Shown here piece by piece: positions 9,130-63,894 of a stretch of DNA of 64,000 nucleotides (positions within the stretch are counted from its first letter, which is position 1; each line of letters opens with the position of its first letter). Where the stretch lies: assembly GCA_016934415.1 (NCBI GenBank), contig JAFGSW010000003.1, positions 1-64,000 on the forward strand. The letters run 5' to 3'. The position numbers and the translations under genes were made by a program. This stretch comes from Spirochaetales bacterium (lineage in GTDB: Bacteria; Spirochaetota; Spirochaetia; SZUA-6; RPPD01). The notes beneath the pieces were generated by a model. The model saw only the letters and a program-made list of their open reading frames with translations. It was not told the DNA's origin and searched no databases.

Positions 9130-9755
9130 ACCATGGATAATACGGATGGGAACGGATTACACGGATGGGGAAAGAAGGGAATAAAAACTACGGATGAGCG
9201 AGCACGCCATCGTATCAGATGAGGAAGAGGGTGGAGAACTTTCATTTTGTAGAGGGATTGAACATGAAAATCCATATTTTTGTTTTGGTGATTATCCTTT
9301 CATCGAATATGGTATCGTGTTTTTGTTCCAACGGGCAATTAATTTCTGAAGAATCGCCACCGCATAAATAAAGCGGTAGAGTTACAATTCAAGAAACGGA
9401 TGAAAAAATATTATTCTACATCGAAACAGTAATGAATCCAAAAAACTATTTCTTTTATAGGATACACGCCATCCCTAATGATGGGAGTCGGCTGCGGTTT
9501 TCTGGAGGCGAAATTACCATAATAAATATAAGCGATACGATTTTAGGTATTGAATATCAGAAAACAGCAAAAAATAATATAGCAATAACCGAAGGGATGA
9601 TCGAATTAGGAAACAAGTCCACAAACAGACATGAAGCATATATATTTGAGATTTTCTTTTTCTCTCTATCCGCGCTCATCCGCGTCCTATCCGTAGTTTT
9701 CCTTCCCCTCCTCATCCGTGTCATCCGTCCCATCCGTTCTCATCCGTGGTTCCCT
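9126..9755. mobile_element. F1 inverted-arm element enclosing an AT-rich segment
   Basis: Left modules GAACCATGGATAATACGGATGGGAACGGAT... and ACTACGGATGAG; right modules in mirror order (CTCATCCGCGTCCTATCCGTAGTT, then CATCCGTCCCATCCGTTCTCATCCGTGGTTCCC). Confidence 0.55.
9264..9660 (+). pseudogene. Decayed putative lipoprotein gene interrupted by an in-frame TAA and truncated by F1 repeat
   Basis: MKIHIFVLVIILSSNMVSCFCSNG...PPHK* (stop 9369-9371) continues in the same frame as SGRVTIQETDEKILFYIETVMNPKNYFFYRIH...; base composition unlike surroundings. Confidence 0.6.
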
Positions 9756-29538: not shown

Positions 29539-30310
29539 GCTCCTGCTCGCCTACGAGGGCACGCGCTTCGCGGGCTGGCAGACGCAGGCGAAGGAGCGCA
29601 CCGTGCAGGGCGAGCTCGAGGCGGCCCTGGAGAAAATCCTCGGGAGCCCGGCGACCGTCACCGGCGCGGGCCGGACGGACGCGGGCGTGCACGCCACCGG
29701 CCAGGCGGCGCACTTCGACGCCGAGGGTTCGCGCGTTCCGCCGGAACGCTGGGCCGACGCCCTCAACGGCAACCTGCCGCACGACGTGCGCGTGCTGAAA
29801 AGCGAGGAGGCCCCGCCCGGGTTTCACGCCCGCTACTCGGCCGTGCTCCGCGTCTACCGGTACTACCTCTACGCGGCGCCCGTCGGCTTTCCGCACCTCC
29901 GCCGCTTCGCCTGGCGGATCCGGCGGCCGCTCGACCTTCAGACGCTCAACCGCTACGCCGCCCTGATAGCGGGCGAGCACGATTTCACGAGCTTCGCCGC
30001 GGCCGGCGACCCGACCGAGTCCAAAGTCCGCACCGTCGCGACGAGTTGTTTTTCTCGGCACGGGGACCTCATCGTCTTCCATATCGCCGCGTCCTCCTTT
30101 CTCTGGCGCATGGTGCGGAACATCGTGGGCACGATTGTGGACGCCGCGCTCTGCGGCCGGAGCGAGGATGAATTCACGGCCATCTTCGCCGCCCGCGACC
30201 GCTCGGCCGCCGGCCCCACGGCCCCGGCGCGGGGGTTGTTCCTGGAGGAGGTCGTCTACGAGGACCCACCACGAAGAAGAGAAGAAGAACTACGGATAGG
30301 ACGCGGATGA
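29525..30310 (+). CDS. truA: tRNA pseudouridine synthase A
   Basis: LLLAYEGTRFAGWQTQ, GAGRTDAGVHATGQAAHF, HDFTSFAA; C-terminal residues and stop lie in an F1 left arm. Confidence 0.95.
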   Translation: MARIKLLLAYEGTRFAGWQTQAKERTVQGELEAALEKILGSPATVTGAGRTDAGVHATGQAAHFDAEGSRVPPERWADALNGNLPHDVRVLKSEEAPPGFHARYSAVLRVYRYYLYAAPVGFPHLRRFAWRIRRPLDLQTLNRYAALIAGEHDFTSFAAAGDPTESKVRTVATSCFSRHGDLIVFHIAASSFLWRMVRNIVGTIVDAALCGRSEDEFTAIFAARDRSAAGPTAPARGLFLEEVVYEDPPRRREEELRIGRG

Positions 30311-30532
30311 GCGCGGATGAAGAGGGGCAGGGAAGAGTTTTTAATGAGCTGGGAAGACTTTTCAATGAGTGGGGAAGACTTTTCAATGAGTCGGGAGGAC
30401 TTTTCAATGAGTCGGGAGGACTTTTCAATGAGTCGGGAGGACTTTTCAATGAGGGTGGGGAAGAAATTTTTTCGTTTTTCCTCCCCCCTCTCCTTTATAT
30501 CCGCGTCCCATCCGCGTTCATCCGTAGTTTTG
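30283..30532. repeat. F1 inverted-arm element with minisatellite core
   Basis: Left arm AGAACTACGGATAGGACGCGGATGAGCGCGGATGAAG; right arm ATCCGCGTCCCATCCGCGTTCATCCGTAGTT; six 21-bp tandem repeats between. Confidence 0.85.
30330..30455. repeat. 6 x 21-bp tandem repeat (GGGARGACTTTTCAATGAGTC)
   Basis: Units 30330-50, 351-371, 372-392, 393-413, 414-434, 435-455. Confidence 0.95.
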
Positions 30533-56974: not shown

Positions 56975-57134
56975 TAAATGATAGGGATTCCGGGGTAAAA
57001 TGCAAATTCCGAACGATTTTTCGCCAGTCGCGTTTTCCCGCCGATCCCATCGTCAGTATATTATCCGAAGACGATCGCGCTTCCCCGCGTGGCGCGGGAT
57101 AGAACCGATAAGGCGAGAAGGGCGGTACGGGGTC

Positions 57135-58157
57135 ATGAACGACGAGTCGATCATTAAATTTCTGGACGGCGACGACGCGAACGGGTCGAATTCGGTTCCC
57201 CGGGAGAAGGAAAACACGAGCGACGCCGATCCGCTCGACGCATATTCCCGGACCGTCATCAAGGTGGCGGACCAGGTCGGTCCCGTCGTGGCGGCCGTGC
57301 GTGTCAGGCAGAACGGGTACACGCCCTGGGGCCGGGAAGGGGCGGGGAGCGGGGTGATCATCGCGCCGGACGGGTTCGTCCTCACCAACAACCACGTGGT
57401 GGAAAACTCGGGCGAGCTTATGGTCACCCTCACCGACGGCGAGACGTACCCCGTGCGCGTCGTCGGCACCGACCCGGCCACGGATCTGGCGGTGATAAAG
57501 GCCGACGCCGCCCGTCTTCCCTTCGCGGTTTTCGCCGATTCCGACCGCCTGCGCGTCGGCCAGCTGGCGGTGGCCATCGGCAATCCGTTCGGCTTTCAGA
57601 GCACGGTGTCGGCGGGCGTGATCTCGGCGCTCGGGCGCTCGCTGCGCGGCCGGTCCGGCCGGCTCATTGACAACATCATCCAGACCGACGTCGCCCTCAA
57701 CCCCGGCAACTCGGGCGGCCCGCTGGCCGACTCCCTGGGACGCGTCATCGGCATCAACACCGCCATGATCCAGACGGCGCAGGGGATCTCCTTCGCCGTT
57801 CCGTCGAACACCGCCAAGTGGGTGGCGGGAGAGATCATCGCCCGCGGCCGCGTCACCCGCGCCTACCTGGGGATCGCCGCCGCGTCAGTGCCGGTGTCGC
57901 GCAGCATCCAGCACAGGCTCGCGCTCAAGTTCCCGTCCATCGTCGAGGTGGCCTCGGTGGAGGCCGGCGGCCCGGCCGTCCGCGCCGGGCTCGCGCCCGG
58001 CGACCTCATGTACGGTCTCGAGGACTCCGAGGTCAACTCCGTCGACGACATCCACCGCCTCCTCTCCAAGTGGCCGCCGGGCAAACCGGTGGCGGTCAAG
58101 ATCGTCCGCCGCCGCAAGCCCATGACGCTCACCATCACCCCGGGCGATTCCGGCTGA
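57135..58157 (+). CDS. S1C/HtrA-like serine protease with PDZ, no obvious signal peptide
   Basis: GSGVIIAPDGFVLTNNHVV, DLAVIKAD, NPGNSGGPLADSLGRVIGINTA, C-terminal PDZ; N-terminus MNDESIIKFLDGDDANG is hydrophilic. Confidence 0.88.
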   Translation: MNDESIIKFLDGDDANGSNSVPREKENTSDADPLDAYSRTVIKVADQVGPVVAAVRVRQNGYTPWGREGAGSGVIIAPDGFVLTNNHVVENSGELMVTLTDGETYPVRVVGTDPATDLAVIKADAARLPFAVFADSDRLRVGQLAVAIGNPFGFQSTVSAGVISALGRSLRGRSGRLIDNIIQTDVALNPGNSGGPLADSLGRVIGINTAMIQTAQGISFAVPSNTAKWVAGEIIARGRVTRAYLGIAAASVPVSRSIQHRLALKFPSIVEVASVEAGGPAVRAGLAPGDLMYGLEDSEVNSVDDIHRLLSKWPPGKPVAVKIVRRRKPMTLTITPGDSG

Positions 58158-58510
58158 GGGGAAACACGGATAACATGGCGCCAGGACGGATGAAGAGGGG
58201 TGCCACGGATGGCACGGATGGGACGGATGAAGAAGGAGGGAGGCTGAGGAATCCAGGAATATAAAAAACCAGGAAAAGAAGGAATATTTGAAAAAAGCGA
58301 TGAGGATTTTATTCATGGAGTTTATTTGTTCACAAACCGAAGTCCATAGTAAGAGTTTCTTCCACAAGTCTTTCTGTTTTCCATTCGCGTTTATCCACAT
58401 CCTTTCCGTTATTTCCTGATCTCTTTTCCTGAATTCCTATTTCCCTGGTTTCCTGATGTTCTTATCCTCATCCGTGCTCATCCATCTTGTCCGTCTCATC
58501 CGGGGTTCTC
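58156..58510. mobile_element. Nested F1(F2 ... F2)F1 inverted-arm element
   Basis: F1 left 58160-58232, F2 left 58248-58285, F2 right 58411-58460, F1 right 58461-58508. Confidence 0.65.
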
Positions 58511-58563: not shown

Positions 58564-59910
58564 ATGAAACCGAAAACAGCCGCCGTGATCGGCATTGGCA
58601 CCGAGATCATGAAGGGCGCCATCGACGATACCAATGCCACGTTCCTTTCCCAATGGCTTTTCAATCTTGGCTTGGAAGTACGGCTGCGCGTCAATGTTCC
58701 CGACGCCCGGGAGGACATCGCCGCCGCCCTGCGGGCCGCGGAGGGGTGCGGCCTCGTCATCTTGACCGGCGGGCTGGGACCGACGGACGACGACCTGACG
58801 CGGGAGGCCCTGGCCGCGTACCTGGGAAGGGAGCTTGTCTTCGACGAGCAGGCCTGGACCGTTATGCGCGCTTTTTTCGAGAAGCGCGGCCGTGAGACTC
58901 CCGAGTCGAACAGGCGGCAGGCTTTCGTCATGACCGGGGCCGAGGTGCTGTCCAACCCGAACGGGACGGCTCCCGGCCAGTTCTGCGAGGCGGGCGGCCG
59001 GCATTTCGCGCTGCTGCCGGGCCCTCCGGCCGAGAATCAACCCATGGCGCACGGGCCGCTTCTGGAGAAGCTGCGCGAGCGCGGCTTCTCCTCCGGCGCG
59101 CCGGTCCTGCGCGTCATCCGCACCTACGGCGTCGGCGAGAGCGCCCTGGCCGACCTCCTGCCGGGCGCGGCGTTCCGCTCCGAAGTGGGCTGGTATTTCA
59201 GTCAGGAAGGCTGGGTCGAGATGCACTTCACCGCCCGCGATGACGGAAGCGGGCGCGGCGCCGCCGTCGTGGACGCCGATTGCGAGAAAGCGCGGACCGC
59301 GCTTGAGAAATCAGGCGTTTTTTTTACCGGCCCGATCGATCTCTCCACGCTTCTCCTTGAGGAGCTCGCCGGGCGAGGACTCACCATCGCCTTCGCCGAA
59401 TCGATCACCGGCGGCGCCATGGCCGCCGAGCTCGTGAAGAATCCCGGCGCCTCGAACGCGCTGCGGGGCGGGGTGGTCGCCTACTCGAACGAGATCAAGG
59501 AAAAACTCCTCGGCGTCTCGGCCGAGACCCTGCGCAGGCGCGGCGCGGTGTCGGCGGAGACGGTGCGGGAGATGGCGGCCGGTCTGCGGGAGCGCACCGG
59601 CGCCGACGTCTGCGTCGCCGTGTCCGGCATCGCCGGCCCGGACGGCGGGAGCAGGGCCAAGCCGATCGGCCTGGTCCACTTCGGCTTCCTCATCGGCGAC
59701 CGCGACTTTCAGCTGCGGGCGCTTCTGCCGGGCAACAGGCTGCGCGTGATAAGGCGCGCGGTCGCCTTTGCCTTCGTGGAGACGCTCAAGGCTTTACGGG
59801 CCGGGGATAGGGGAACCACGGATAACACGGATAAGAGAAAGAGAGAAGGAAGAACTACGGATGGGACGCGGATAAACGCGGATGACGTAAGGAAAGCTTT
59901 GGAAAAATAA
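58564..59910 (+). CDS. cinA: CinA (competence/damage-inducible protein, C-terminal NMN deamidase-like domain)
   Basis: AAVIGIGTEIMKGAIDDTNATFLSQWL, LTGGLGPTDDDLTREALAAYLG, IAFAESITGGAMAAELVKNPGAS, SGIAGPDGGSRAKPIGLV; repeat-encoded C-terminal tail. Confidence 0.93.
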   Translation: MKPKTAAVIGIGTEIMKGAIDDTNATFLSQWLFNLGLEVRLRVNVPDAREDIAAALRAAEGCGLVILTGGLGPTDDDLTREALAAYLGRELVFDEQAWTVMRAFFEKRGRETPESNRRQAFVMTGAEVLSNPNGTAPGQFCEAGGRHFALLPGPPAENQPMAHGPLLEKLRERGFSSGAPVLRVIRTYGVGESALADLLPGAAFRSEVGWYFSQEGWVEMHFTARDDGSGRGAAVVDADCEKARTALEKSGVFFTGPIDLSTLLLEELAGRGLTIAFAESITGGAMAAELVKNPGASNALRGGVVAYSNEIKEKLLGVSAETLRRRGAVSAETVREMAAGLRERTGADVCVAVSGIAGPDGGSRAKPIGLVHFGFLIGDRDFQLRALLPGNRLRVIRRAVAFAFVETLKALRAGDRGTTDNTDKRKREGRTTDGTRINADDVRKALEK

Positions 59911-60116
59911 AGAGATGTAAAATGCCGGAAAAAGTAGTATCGGTACAAACAGTCGTTTCCTTATTCGTCGTTTGACTCTGTTCATTCAATATCAGAATAT
60001 TTTTTCGTTCGTTTTTTCCTACTTTCCACCCACCCTTTGCTTTCTTCATCCGCGTTATCCGTCCTATCCGTGTCATCCGTGGTTCTCTTCTCATCTCCGC
60101 GTTCATCTGAAGTTTC
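59811..60116. repeat. F1 inverted-arm element
   Basis: GGAACCACGGATAACACGGATAAG...GAACTACGGATGGGACGCGGATAAACGCGGATGA ... TTCATCCGCGTTATCCGTCCTATCCGTGTCATCCGTGGTTCTC. Confidence 0.8.
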
Positions 60117-60138
60117 CCCTCATTGTGAATTATTCTAT

Positions 60139-60170
60139 TGTAATTATATTGAAAATACAATATAATTACA
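60139..60170. promoter_or_regulatory. Putative operator: perfect 13-bp inverted repeat TGTAATTATATTG-AAAATA-CAATATAATTACA
   Basis: Direct reading; 17 bp upstream of the AbrB-FliG-like ORF start. Confidence 0.85.
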
Positions 60171-60187
60171 TATACAAGGAGGCAAAC

Positions 60188-60601
60188 ATGCGCATACCAA
60201 TCATCGACATCGGCAATTCCAAGGGGGTGCGGATCCCGAAGGCGGTTCTGAAGCAGGTCCTGTTCAAGGACGAGGTGGAGATGGACGTGGCCCACGGTAG
60301 AATCGTATTGAAGCGGCCGGGGAGCGTCAATGTCATCCCCGACTTCGACGGCATTGCCGATATGGACGATCTCACCATCCAGCTCATGCTCCGCAGAATC
60401 TCAGGCACCGACCTACTCATCGCCATGGTCGGCGCGGAAAAAAAGGTCAAGGCGGCGATGTACCGCAACCTGTCCGAGCGCGTCCGGAACTACGTCCAGG
60501 CCAAGCTCAAAAAACTGGAGAAGGGCGACGCCCGCGACATTCTCATCGAGCGGAGCCGGGACAAAATCAGCGAGGCGTTCATGGAAGTGCTGCAGGGCTG
60601 A
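60188..60601 (+). CDS. MazE/AbrB-type N-terminal domain fused to FliG-like domain
   Basis: N-term IPIIDIGNSKGVRIPKAVLKQVLFKDEVEMDVAHGRIVLKRP (SpoVT-AbrB/MazE); C-term MDDLTIQLMLRRISGTDLLIAMVGAEKKVKAAMYRNLSERVRNYVQAKLKKLEKGDARDILIERSRDKI matches the FliG pattern (DDRSIQxVLREVDxxDLAxALKGAxxxVKxxIFKNMSKR). SD CAAGGAGG. Confidence 0.85.
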   Translation: MRIPIIDIGNSKGVRIPKAVLKQVLFKDEVEMDVAHGRIVLKRPGSVNVIPDFDGIADMDDLTIQLMLRRISGTDLLIAMVGAEKKVKAAMYRNLSERVRNYVQAKLKKLEKGDARDILIERSRDKISEAFMEVLQG

Positions 60602-60672
60602 GGCCGAAAAAAGAAAGGCCGTCCCCGCTTTGTGAAACGGGTGACGGCCCGCTTAAGGGAGTAGGCTGGGGA

Positions 60673-62103
60673 TTACTTGGTCAACGTGAACGTCATCGGG
60701 CTGCCGCCCCGGTTGACGCGCAGCTCGATGCTGGACCGGGATGAAACGAGGTTGAGGTACCGGTAGAAATCGGCCCCGTTCGAAATTTGATGGTTATCGA
60801 GGCTGATGATGACATCACCCTGCCGCAACCCGGCTGCGTCGCCGCGGCTTCCCCGCGGCACGTCGAGGACGACCGCTCCCCGTAAGCCGTTGGGAATATT
60901 GAGCGCGCTCCGGATGTCGGGCGAGAGCGAATCGATCCCGAAGCCGGGCCAGACGACGTTGGCCTGCGCGCTTAGGGTGTTGGCGTCGGCGCGGGTGGCG
61001 AGGGTGACGCGGACGGTGTGCGGCCGGCCGTCGCGGACGAGCGAGAGCGCGGCGGTATCGCCGGGCGTCAGGTTGGCGATGAGCTGCAGGAGCCGGGACG
61101 TGTTGCCCGCCTTGTCCGACCCAATGGCCGTCACGTAGTCGCCGGGCAGGAGCCCCGCCGTGGCCGCCGGCCCGTTGGTGAACACTCCCGAAACAAGGGA
61201 ACCGCCGCCGGAGGGAAGGTTCATGTCCCGGGCAAGCGTCGCGGAGAGATCGCCGACGGTCACGCCCATCCAGCCGTACTCGACTTTCCCCTTGGTGATG
61301 AGATCATTAATGTCCTTCTTGGCGTTGTTGATGGGGATGGCGAAGCCGAGTCCCACGCTGCCCCCCGAGTTCGAGGCGATCCAGGTGTTGATGCCGATCA
61401 CCTGGCCCTCGATGTTCACGAGGGCGCCGCCCGAATTGCCCTGGTTGATCGCCGCGTCGGTCTGGATGTAGTTGGTGAAGCCCGCACCGTTGGCCTGCGC
61501 GTAATCGCGGCCCACGGCGCTCACGATGCCGGCCGTGAGCGTGCCGGTGAAGCCCAACGGATTGCCGATGGCGAGCACCCAGTCGCCCACCTGGACGGAA
61601 TTCGAGTCCCCGAGCTCGGCGATGGGGACCTGGTCCGAGGTCGTGAAGGAGACGAGAGCCAAATCTTTGTTTTCATCTTTCCCCACGAGCGTGGCCGGGA
61701 ACGTCCGGTTGTCCGAAAGCCGGACCTGGATGGAGGCGGCCGAGCCGGCCACATGATTGTTGGTGAGCACGTATACGGTGTTCCCGCGGCGTTCGACGAT
61801 CACGCCGGAGCCGAGGGCCGGCCGGCGGAATTCCCTCGTACGCGGGGGATTGTTCCCGAAGTCGAACGGATTGAAATTGAGGACCGGACCCCGCGTGATG
61901 TCGACCACGTGAATCTCAACCACGGTCGGCACCACCTTGGCCGCGACGACGTGAAAGGCGTCCTGCATCTGCTTCAGGGTTTGCAGTCCCATCTGCGCCT
62001 GGGACGGATCCTTGGCCCCCAGGAACAGGAAGGCCAGGAGCACGATCCCGAGGCCCGCGATCGCGTTGCGGATTATTTTTCTCGATGCTGATTGTACGTT
62101 CAT
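60673..62103 (-). CDS. HtrA/DegP-like periplasmic serine protease with PDZ domains
   Basis: Signal anchor; YVLTNNHVAGSA, DLALVSF, INQGNSGGALVNIEGQVIGINTW; two PDZ regions. Confidence 0.93.
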   Translation of the reverse strand: MNVQSASRKIIRNAIAGLGIVLLAFLFLGAKDPSQAQMGLQTLKQMQDAFHVVAAKVVPTVVEIHVVDITRGPVLNFNPFDFGNNPPRTREFRRPALGSGVIVERRGNTVYVLTNNHVAGSAASIQVRLSDNRTFPATLVGKDENKDLALVSFTTSDQVPIAELGDSNSVQVGDWVLAIGNPLGFTGTLTAGIVSAVGRDYAQANGAGFTNYIQTDAAINQGNSGGALVNIEGQVIGINTWIASNSGGSVGLGFAIPINNAKKDINDLITKGKVEYGWMGVTVGDLSATLARDMNLPSGGGSLVSGVFTNGPAATAGLLPGDYVTAIGSDKAGNTSRLLQLIANLTPGDTAALSLVRDGRPHTVRVTLATRADANTLSAQANVVWPGFGIDSLSPDIRSALNIPNGLRGAVVLDVPRGSRGDAAGLRQGDVIISLDNHQISNGADFYRYLNLVSSRSSIELRVNRGGSPMTFTLTK

Positions 62104-62208
62104 CTGTTTTTCCTCCTCAAAAAAGCCAATATTTCGCCGCTGACGAGCGGCGTTTCGTACAATGCTTTTTGCATGAACGGTTTTTGCCGATACCGCTGTT
62201 CTCACGGT

Positions 62209-63702
62209 TCACCTCCCGAGATCGATCGTGAGATCCGCGCCGCTGCGGATGATTCCGACCCGGACGGGGTTGTGCGATCGGTCATTGAGCGCGGCGTAAA
62301 ATTCGCGCAGGGTGGCCGCGGTCCGGCCGTTCATGGTTTTGACGATGTCTCCGGCGAGGAATCCGGCCGCCGCCGCCGGCGACCCCCGATCCACCCGACT
62401 CACCACCAGACCGCCGGCCGATGGCGCAAGGCCCAGACGGGCGCGAATGTCATTGGTGATTTTGACCAGGCCCAGGCCCGGCCAGAGTTCGGAGGAGCCC
62501 AGGTCATTATCCGCCGGCCGCTCAGTGATGGCGACGGAGAGCGTCCGTTCCACGCCCTGACGCACCACCGAAAAGGTCGCGCGCGCGCCGGCCGGCAGGT
62601 TGCCGACGGTGAGGGTGAGCTGCGTCATGTCGCTCAAGTCGCGGCCGTCGACTTTGACGATGAAGTCGCCGGGCAGTACGCCGGCCGCGGCCGCGGGCGA
62701 ATTACGATACACGTCGGAGACGAACGCGCCCCCGCGGTTCGCCGCGCCCAGGTCCGCCTTGGCGGCGTCGTTCAGATCGGTTCCCGATATGCCGAGCCAG
62801 CCGTAGGAGACCTTCCCCTTGGTGATGAAATCCTCGATCGCCTTCTTGGCGTTGTTGATGGGGATGGCGAACCCCAGTCCCACGCTCCCGCCCGAGGTGG
62901 AGGCGATCCAGGTGTTGATGCCGACGACCCGCCCCTCGATGTTGACGAGCGCGCCGCCCGAGTTGCCCTGGTTGATGGCGGCGTCCGTCTGGAAGTAATC
63001 ATTGAGCGATGAAACGCCCGAGCCGGGCAGCGAATGCCTGCCGACGGCGCTGATGATGCCCTCGGTGACGGTGGAGCTGAACCCGAGCGGGTTGCCGACG
63101 GCCATCACCCAGTCGCCCACCTGAACGGTGTCGGAATCGCCGAGCGCGGCGACGGGAAACGTCCCGGACGCCGTGAACGACACCAGGGCGAGGTCCTTGC
63201 GCTCGTCCCGGCCGGTGACGGTCGCCTTGAAGCGTCGCTTGTCGGTGAGAACGACGGTGATCTCGTCGGCGCCTTTCACCACGTGGTTATTGGTGAGCAC
63301 GTACACCCGGTTGCCCACCTGGCGGACAATGACGCCGGAACCGAGGCCTTCCTGGCGGTACTGCCGCGTTTGGGGCCGGAGGGTGTCCGGAGAGCCGAAG
63401 AAAAAGTCGAAGGGCGAGGGAAAGGAGGGCGCGGTTTGCGTCACCACGTCCACCACGTCGATTTCAACCACCGCCGGAAGAATGGTGCTGGAAATCTCCC
63501 GGAAGGCGGCCTGCATGTTCGAGACGGCCTCGAAGCCCCGGCGCGCGTCGTTCGTTAATTCCACGTTAAGGGGCGCGCCGGCGACAACGTCCCCTCCCCG
63601 GGGAATGACCGCCGCCGACACAAGCAGACCCGCCCCGAAAAAGACGAGCGCTGCGGCGGCGATCTGGAAGATTCTCGATTTCAATATTTTTTTTATTTCC
63701 AT
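62209..63702 (-). CDS. HtrA/DegP-like periplasmic serine protease with PDZ domains
   Basis: Signal anchor; YVLTNNHVVKGAD, DLALVSF, INQGNSGGALVNIEGRVVGINTW; AGGGAGG SD. Confidence 0.93.
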   Translation of the reverse strand: MEIKKILKSRIFQIAAAALVFFGAGLLVSAAVIPRGGDVVAGAPLNVELTNDARRGFEAVSNMQAAFREISSTILPAVVEIDVVDVVTQTAPSFPSPFDFFFGSPDTLRPQTRQYRQEGLGSGVIVRQVGNRVYVLTNNHVVKGADEITVVLTDKRRFKATVTGRDERKDLALVSFTASGTFPVAALGDSDTVQVGDWVMAVGNPLGFSSTVTEGIISAVGRHSLPGSGVSSLNDYFQTDAAINQGNSGGALVNIEGRVVGINTWIASTSGGSVGLGFAIPINNAKKAIEDFITKGKVSYGWLGISGTDLNDAAKADLGAANRGGAFVSDVYRNSPAAAAGVLPGDFIVKVDGRDLSDMTQLTLTVGNLPAGARATFSVVRQGVERTLSVAITERPADNDLGSSELWPGLGLVKITNDIRARLGLAPSAGGLVVSRVDRGSPAAAAGFLAGDIVKTMNGRTAATLREFYAALNDRSHNPVRVGIIRSGADLTIDLGR

Positions 63703-63894
63703 AATCAACCTCCCTTGCTCTTGATGGTCTTAAGGTACAGGCGCCTCCTTTCGATAGGCTGACAAAAGGATTACAGATTTGTAAGGGAGATACTTTCACT
63801 CGGACGGACGCTTCCGGCATGAGTGTGTTTTTCCCATCCGGCTTTTCGCGACACCGCCGTTCGTGATATGCTCGAAATGAGGCAAGGTTGGCGC

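What the first reader, a model, noticed from the sequence alone, without database searches (positions are those of the whole stretch)
60139..60601. MazE/AbrB DNA-binding domain fused to a FliG-like domain, with its own perfect operator and no toxin
The 137-aa ORF has a clear MazE/AbrB-type N-terminus (DIGNSKGVRIPKAVLKQ...DEVEMDVAHGRIVLKRP) and a C-terminus matching the FliG consensus closely. FliG domains normally act in the flagellar switch or, as the related MgtE_N fold, in Mg2+ transporters; I know of no described role tethered to an antitoxin-type DNA binder. The 13-bp perfect inverted repeat TGTAATTATATTG-6-CAATATAATTACA 17 bp upstream suggests autoregulation. Downstream is the convergent htrA gene, so no toxin ORF is adjacent. 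Hypothesis: a DNA-binding oligomer using a FliG/MgtE-like module for assembly or sensing, possibly tied to motility control.
Basis: partly seen in the sequence, partly recalled or inferred. Interest (0 to 1): 0.78.

Follow-up and report, generated by a model that had tools for sequence, protein, structure and literature searches.

The report
Self-regulated DNA-binder with flagellar-switch domain
An uncultured spirochaete carries a small, apparently self-regulating DNA-binding protein in which the tail that normally grips a toxin has been replaced by a piece of the flagellar motor-switch protein FliG; the arrangement and its DNA target are conserved in several relatives, but no sign of motility control was found.

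Summary
The 137-aa ORF (60188-60601) has an AbrB/MazE-type N-terminus and a FliG_C domain (Pfam E=1e-10; Foldseek best hits are all FliG). The 13+13-bp perfect inverted repeat lies where stated, and no toxin gene is adjacent. The fusion is real and conserved: six close orthologues (54-66% identity), five of them in Spirochaetales MAGs, plus one divergent homologue in another class of the phylum. The strongest new evidence is the operator. All seven close members carry GTAATTACA-N12-TGTAATTAC-like half-sites 17-21 bp before the start codon, overlapping a sigma-70-like promoter. In nearly all genomes searched it is the best or only match, so the protein looks like a dedicated autorepressor. The motility link is not supported: no such site was found at other genes, and the fusion keeps only FliG's last subdomain, without the FliM-linked MFVF motif or the acidic pair of the MotA-facing torque helix. 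In three loci a second short FliG_C gene follows, probably a tandem duplicate. Best reading: a MazE-type autorepressor whose toxin-binding tail was replaced by a FliG_C interaction module. It is a new variant of a known kind, in a lineage that has put FliG_C into many proteins.

The parts
60138..60166 (+). sigma-70-like promoter TTGTAA-17-TATAAT, lying inside the operator
   Evidence: consensus scan, 10 of 12 matches; a -35/17-bp/-10-like arrangement can be read in the same relative position in orthologues (sequences)
60139..60170 (.). operator: perfect 13-bp inverted repeat; contains the conserved 30-bp form GTAATTAYA-N12-TRTAATTAC at 60140-60169
   Evidence: only site at 0-2 mismatches in the 4.06-Mb genome; conserved in six orthologous loci
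60176..60182 (+). ribosome-binding site AAGGAGG
   Evidence: sequence
60188..60322 (+). AbrB/MazE-type DNA-binding domain (residues 1-45, GNSKGxRIPxA motif)
   Evidence: Pfam PF04014 E=1.2e-4; GNSKG.RIP invariant apart from one position in seven orthologues
60341..60568 (+). FliG_C domain (residues 52-127; only the last helical subdomain of FliG)
   Evidence: Pfam PF01706 E=1e-10; PDB 1qc7 E=5e-6; Foldseek 1lkv E=8e-4, top hits all FliG
60188..60601 (+). complete fusion gene, 137 aa plus stop
60619..60640 (-). terminator-like stem-loop belonging to the convergent htrA-type gene; not specific to the fusion
   Evidence: shuffles give about one such site by chance

Best explanation
It is a self-regulating transcription factor built from antitoxin parts. 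A MazE/AbrB-type dimer binds two GTAATTAC half-sites (12 bp apart) that cover its own promoter and keeps its own transcription low. The tail that in a true MazE wraps the toxin has been replaced by the last helical subdomain of FliG. That subdomain serves as a protein-interaction or assembly module, not as a motor part. In part of the lineage its likely partner is the short FliG_C protein encoded right behind it, probably a tandem duplicate; binding of a partner would change DNA binding and so operon output. Shown: the fusion, the operator's conservation and position, its uniqueness in the genome, loss of motor-interface features, absence of an adjacent toxin. Inferred: dimerisation, repression as the sign of regulation, FliG_C as the interaction module, the mini-FliG_C as partner.
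For: Domains. Seven-member family with the same architecture and length, with conserved blocks in both halves (GNSKGIRIP; LEKGD[AV]RDLIIERSRN). Operator in all seven at about -51 to -17, overlapping the promoter; a half-site matrix built without the window ranks the window site first in 64 kb (23.4 bits; next best 11.6) with spacing exactly 12. Best or only genome-wide site in G000 and in five of six other genomes, other sites at control level. MazE operators are known to overlap -10 boxes (PMC9477884). Mini-FliG_C follows in L051, L052 and L056 and groups with the fusions (88/66 support). Ordinary MazE in a relative (L008) has a similar N-terminus with an acidic tail and an adjacent MazF-like gene; the fusion has FliG_C in place of that tail. 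Over half of genes in the largest toxin and antitoxin families are solo, and solo antitoxins are proposed to act as regulators (PMC2701414).
Against: No binding or expression data. The AlphaFold monomer model gives pLDDT under 50 for residues 1-51, so the DNA-binding domain rests on sequence alone. The mini-FliG_C partner is absent in the window, L053 and L055 (and cannot be judged in L054, where the contig ends), so it cannot be the universal partner. A regulator that controls only itself has no evident output in the window, where the gene appears monocistronic. L053's operator is degenerate in its second half and is not recovered at 3 mismatches.
Confidence: 0.6

Rival explanations
1. Motility regulator: the FliG_C domain docks onto the flagellar switch or stator (FliM, FliG or MotA) and so couples gene expression to motor assembly or state.
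For: FliG_C is the MotA-facing domain; 7 of 8 fusion-bearing genomes have the flagellar export gene flhA; MotA-loop-like/FliG_C proteins exist in the same order.
Against: The acidic pair of the torque helix (ED/DD in FliG) is AK, PK or PT in all seven fusions, and the MFVF segment is missing. No operator at other genes in its genome at up to 2 mismatches. Only 4 of 26 held genomes of the order have the fusion although most have FliG.
Confidence: 0.13
2. Antitoxin of a toxin-antitoxin pair, with the toxin in trans or with the neighbouring small gene (mini-FliG_C or another) as an unrecognised toxin.
For: MazE-type DNA-binding domain with an autoregulatory palindrome; in all loci where downstream sequence is available, except the window, a co-directional gene follows closely.
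Against: The MazE toxin-binding tail is gone; the neighbour differs between loci (mini-FliG_C, small membrane-like protein, metallo-beta-lactamase fold, dienelactone hydrolase family, DUF4180). Three of eight genomes have no detected MazF, and the window genome's single MazF has its own adjacent small antitoxin-like ORF. None in plasmids, phages or viral contigs.
Confidence: 0.12
3. FliG_C is merely a passive dimer-stabilising appendage on a solo antitoxin, with no partner.
For: No universal neighbour; the window gene stands alone.
Against: LEKGD[AV]RD and ERSR are almost invariant at 54-66% overall identity, more than a passive scaffold needs; the FliG_C half is retained in a divergent homologue from another class.
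Confidence: 0.13

Closest known systems
MazE/AbrB-type antitoxins (E. coli MazE, PDB 1mvf/1ub4; M. tuberculosis MazE6, PMC9477884)
   Same: N-terminal domain with GNSxGxRIPxA motif; operator overlapping the promoter -10 region of its own gene (palindromic in E. coli)
   Different: No toxin-binding tail, no adjacent MazF/PemK; C-terminus is a FliG_C domain
FliG C-terminal (D5) subdomain (PDB 1qc7, 1lkv, 8ucs)
   Same: Sequence and predicted fold: helical bundle, 1.8-2.0 A over 84 columns
   Different: No FliG_N or FliG_M domain, no MFVF motif, no acidic pair in the torque helix, fused to a DNA-binding domain
LIC10244 family (NCBIfam NF047717, Leptospira, reported as a PerRA/PerRB-affected hypothetical protein, PMC8638967)
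   Same: A relative in this order (L106) combines FliG_C with MotA-like segments in one predicted non-membrane protein; shows FliG_C used outside the switch complex
   Different: No DNA-binding domain; MotA-like cytoplasmic segments instead; FliG-type torque-helix acids (ED) kept in L106/L108

Membership tests
MazE antitoxin | AbrB/MazE swapped-hairpin DNA-binding domain | tested here: met
   PF04014 E=1.2e-4, slightly under cut-off for the window protein, over it in two homologues; the fold itself was not confirmed
MazE antitoxin | Palindromic operator overlapping its own promoter | tested here: met
MazE antitoxin | Acidic C-terminal tail that binds MazF | tested here: not met
   replaced by FliG_C (compare ordinary MazE in L008)
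MazE antitoxin | Cognate toxin gene adjacent | tested here: not met
   no recognised toxin in any of the loci; MazF missing from three of eight genomes
FliG motor-switch protein | FliG_C domain | tested here: met
FliG motor-switch protein | FliG_N and FliG_M domains, MFVF motif | tested here: not met
FliG motor-switch protein | Acidic pair in the MotA-facing torque helix | tested here: not met
   AK/PK/PT in all seven fusions, against ED or DD in flagellar FliG
FliG motor-switch protein | Assembly into the C-ring | not testable with these tools
   needs experiment
MgtE_N fold | Match to PF03448 | tested here: not met
   no match listed at E up to 10

The most novel reading that the evidence does not exclude
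FliG_C (with its MotA-loop partner) has become a signalling module in these spirochaetes, detached from the flagellum: FliG_C-FliG_C or FliG_C-MotA-loop contacts carry information to DNA-level outputs (MazE-type repressor, ECF sigma factor). The fusion plus its tandem mini-FliG_C would be a two-protein switch of a kind not described before.
Probability: 0.17. Interest if true: 0.75.

Novelty: new variant of a known kind. Interest (0 to 1): 0.5.

Why it matters
FliG_C is textbook as the torque-receiving end of the flagellar rotor. Finding it, stripped of motor-interface residues, as the second half of a conserved autoregulated DNA-binding protein suggests that the rotor's parts can be recruited as general interaction modules, and gives a small, directly testable system (one protein, one operator, sometimes one partner). 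It also shows how a toxin-antitoxin regulator may be converted into something else.

Tried and rejected
Regulon search: the operator pattern at up to 3 mismatches gave only the own site plus chance-level hits in G000 and six other genomes. Mobile-element origin: no homologue in viral contigs, plasmids or phages. MotA-loop/FliG_C proteins as the fusion's partner: not seen in the FliG_C inventories of G013, G014 and G018, so rejected as a general partner. AlphaFold of the fusion gave a confident FliG_C half only; the model of the MotA-loop/FliG_C protein was too weak to read. Literature searches found no description of the fusion, but the library is open-access only.

Full report
Observation. 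The ORF begins at ATG 60188 and stops at 60601. Pfam places FliG_C over residues 52-127 with E=1e-10 and MazE_antitoxin over residues 8-43 with E=1.2e-4, just below its curated cut-off. In homologues the MazE match reaches the cut-off (L056 26.4 bits, G128 28.5 bits, against 24.7). The best PDB sequence matches are all FliG (1qc7, E=5e-6), with MazE chains as weaker matches to the N-terminus. A predicted model has a well-formed helical bundle (mean pLDDT about 70-87 over residues 51-120) whose sixteen best Foldseek hits are all FliG; residues 1-51 are below pLDDT 50, which may be expected for an intertwined dimer modelled as a monomer. The inverted repeat is exact, and unlikely by chance.

Family. 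The window genome holds a single copy. Full-length orthologues at 54-66% identity were found in five other genomes that are of the same order or are named as Spirochaetales/Spirochaetaceae MAGs (L052=G018, L056=G013, L054=G014, plus L053 and L055) and in one MAG labelled Ignavibacteriales (L051). Within the 26 held genomes of the order, four carry it, the window's included (a fifth match there covers only the MazE half). A draw of 393 genomes over the phylum added one divergent fusion in another class (G128, E=1.2e-29). The Ignavibacteriales genome shows neither a flagellar FliG nor FlhA, but the contig may be misbinned, so no weight is put on it. No homologue was found in viral contigs, plasmids or phages. 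NCBIfam has no family for the fusion.

Operator. Reading upstream of all seven close members gives GTAATTACA-N12-TGTAATTAC or variants, ending 17-21 bp before the start codon, in each case over a -35/17-bp/-10-like promoter; in the window the promoter TTGTAA-17-TATAAT sits inside the repeat. A half-site matrix built from the six other loci scores the window's site 23.4 bits, the next best of 64 kb 11.6, and only at spacing 12. Across the whole own genome there is one site with 0-2 mismatches. Five further sites have 3 mismatches, where the reversed control pattern gives 3 in all. In five of six other genomes the site at the fusion gene is found, with the fewest mismatches or as the only match; in the sixth (L053's genome) it is too degenerate for the pattern. 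This is strong evidence for autoregulation and against a large regulon of the same operator type. E. coli MazE and M. tuberculosis MazE6 likewise bind at the -10 region of their own operons (PMC9477884).

What the FliG_C half is. Alignment with flagellar FliG shows that only the last subdomain is present: the MFVF segment before it is absent, and the acidic pair in the MotA-facing torque helix (ED/DD in FliG) is AK, PK or PT in all seven fusions. The torque helix is described as negatively charged and MotA-binding (PMC11087270). The fusions instead share a block of their own, LEKGD[AV]RDLIIERSR. The domain is therefore constrained, but apparently not for motor torque.

Partner candidates. In L051, L052 and L056 an 86-94-aa second FliG_C protein follows in the same direction, with an ankyrin-repeat protein (L051, L056; a longer one further away in L052) and a small uncharacterised, probably membrane, protein (L051, L052). 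The four mini-FliG_C (three of these plus an orphan in G002) form one clade (99/97) that groups with the fusions (88/66), which fits a tandem duplication but is not firm; branches are long. The window, L053 and L055 lack the mini; L053 and L055 are followed by a metallo-beta-lactamase-fold protein and a dienelactone-hydrolase-family protein, and G128 by DUF4180. L054 ends at its contig edge. A shared toxin is not seen; MazF is missing in three of eight genomes, and the window genome's MazF has its own small antitoxin-like neighbour. Ordinary MazE in a relative (L008) shows the standard arrangement: similar N-terminus, acidic tail, MazF-like gene next door.

Wider setting. The same order uses FliG_C in many other ways: FliM-FliG fusions (own genome, L057), a FliN-type-FliG fusion (L064), MotA-loop/FliG_C proteins without an apparent membrane part (own genome L059; L106, L108, L112), and an ECF sigma factor fused to FliG_C (L111); a split pair of MotA-loop and FliG_C genes is seen in another genome of the class (L071). 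The MotA-like parts of L071 and L106 are supported by matches to solved MotA stators (E=1e-10 and 1e-14). This makes the fusion one case of a lineage-wide re-use of FliG_C.

Verdict. The finding is real and undescribed in the material searched, the autoregulation reading is well supported, and the motility reading is not. Mechanistically it is best read as a MazE-like autorepressor with a new effector domain. Interest 0.5: surprising architecture and a clean test system, but no evident output beyond itself and no experimental data.

Noticed in passing
L059:4155-4799(-) (own genome, contig C29); also L112:3659-4309(-), L106:6977-7720(+), L108:5094-5840(-), and the gene pair in L071:2605-3506(+): Proteins of about 214-248 aa combining FliG_C with a segment like MotA's cytoplasmic region, with no apparent membrane part; one genome has the two as adjacent separate genes. 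L106 is related to the Leptospira LIC10244 family (NF047717). Both halves of the motor's torque interface in one predicted soluble protein is unexplained.
   Followed up: partly
L111:2815-4005(+): An ECF-type sigma factor (Sigma70_r2, Sigma70_r4_2) with a C-terminal FliG_C domain (E=3.6e-11): a second case of a transcription factor joined to FliG_C in the same order.
   Followed up: partly
L057:2315-4162(+) (own genome, contig C94); similar in L065, L066, L106:749-2665: FliM fused to FliG_M and FliG_C in one 600-640-aa protein, in addition to the ordinary FliG; L064 has two FliN/FliM C-terminal-type stretches fused to FliG.
   Followed up: partly
L124:1119-1884(-) (genome G128): Divergent MazE-FliG_C fusion in another class of the phylum, followed directly by a DUF4180 gene.
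   Followed up: partly
window: about 15 places, e.g. 1429-1450, 9143-9165, 30293-30320, 58206-58225, 59819-59880, 60048-60080: Dispersed purine-rich CGGAT-containing short repeats (CGGATAACACGGATGA-like), mostly between genes, one running into the 3' end of the cinA-like ORF; origin unknown.
   Followed up: partly
window 57000-58157(+), 60673-62205(-), 62209-63708(-): Three HtrA/DegP-like protease genes within 7 kb, two of them in tandem.
   Followed up: no
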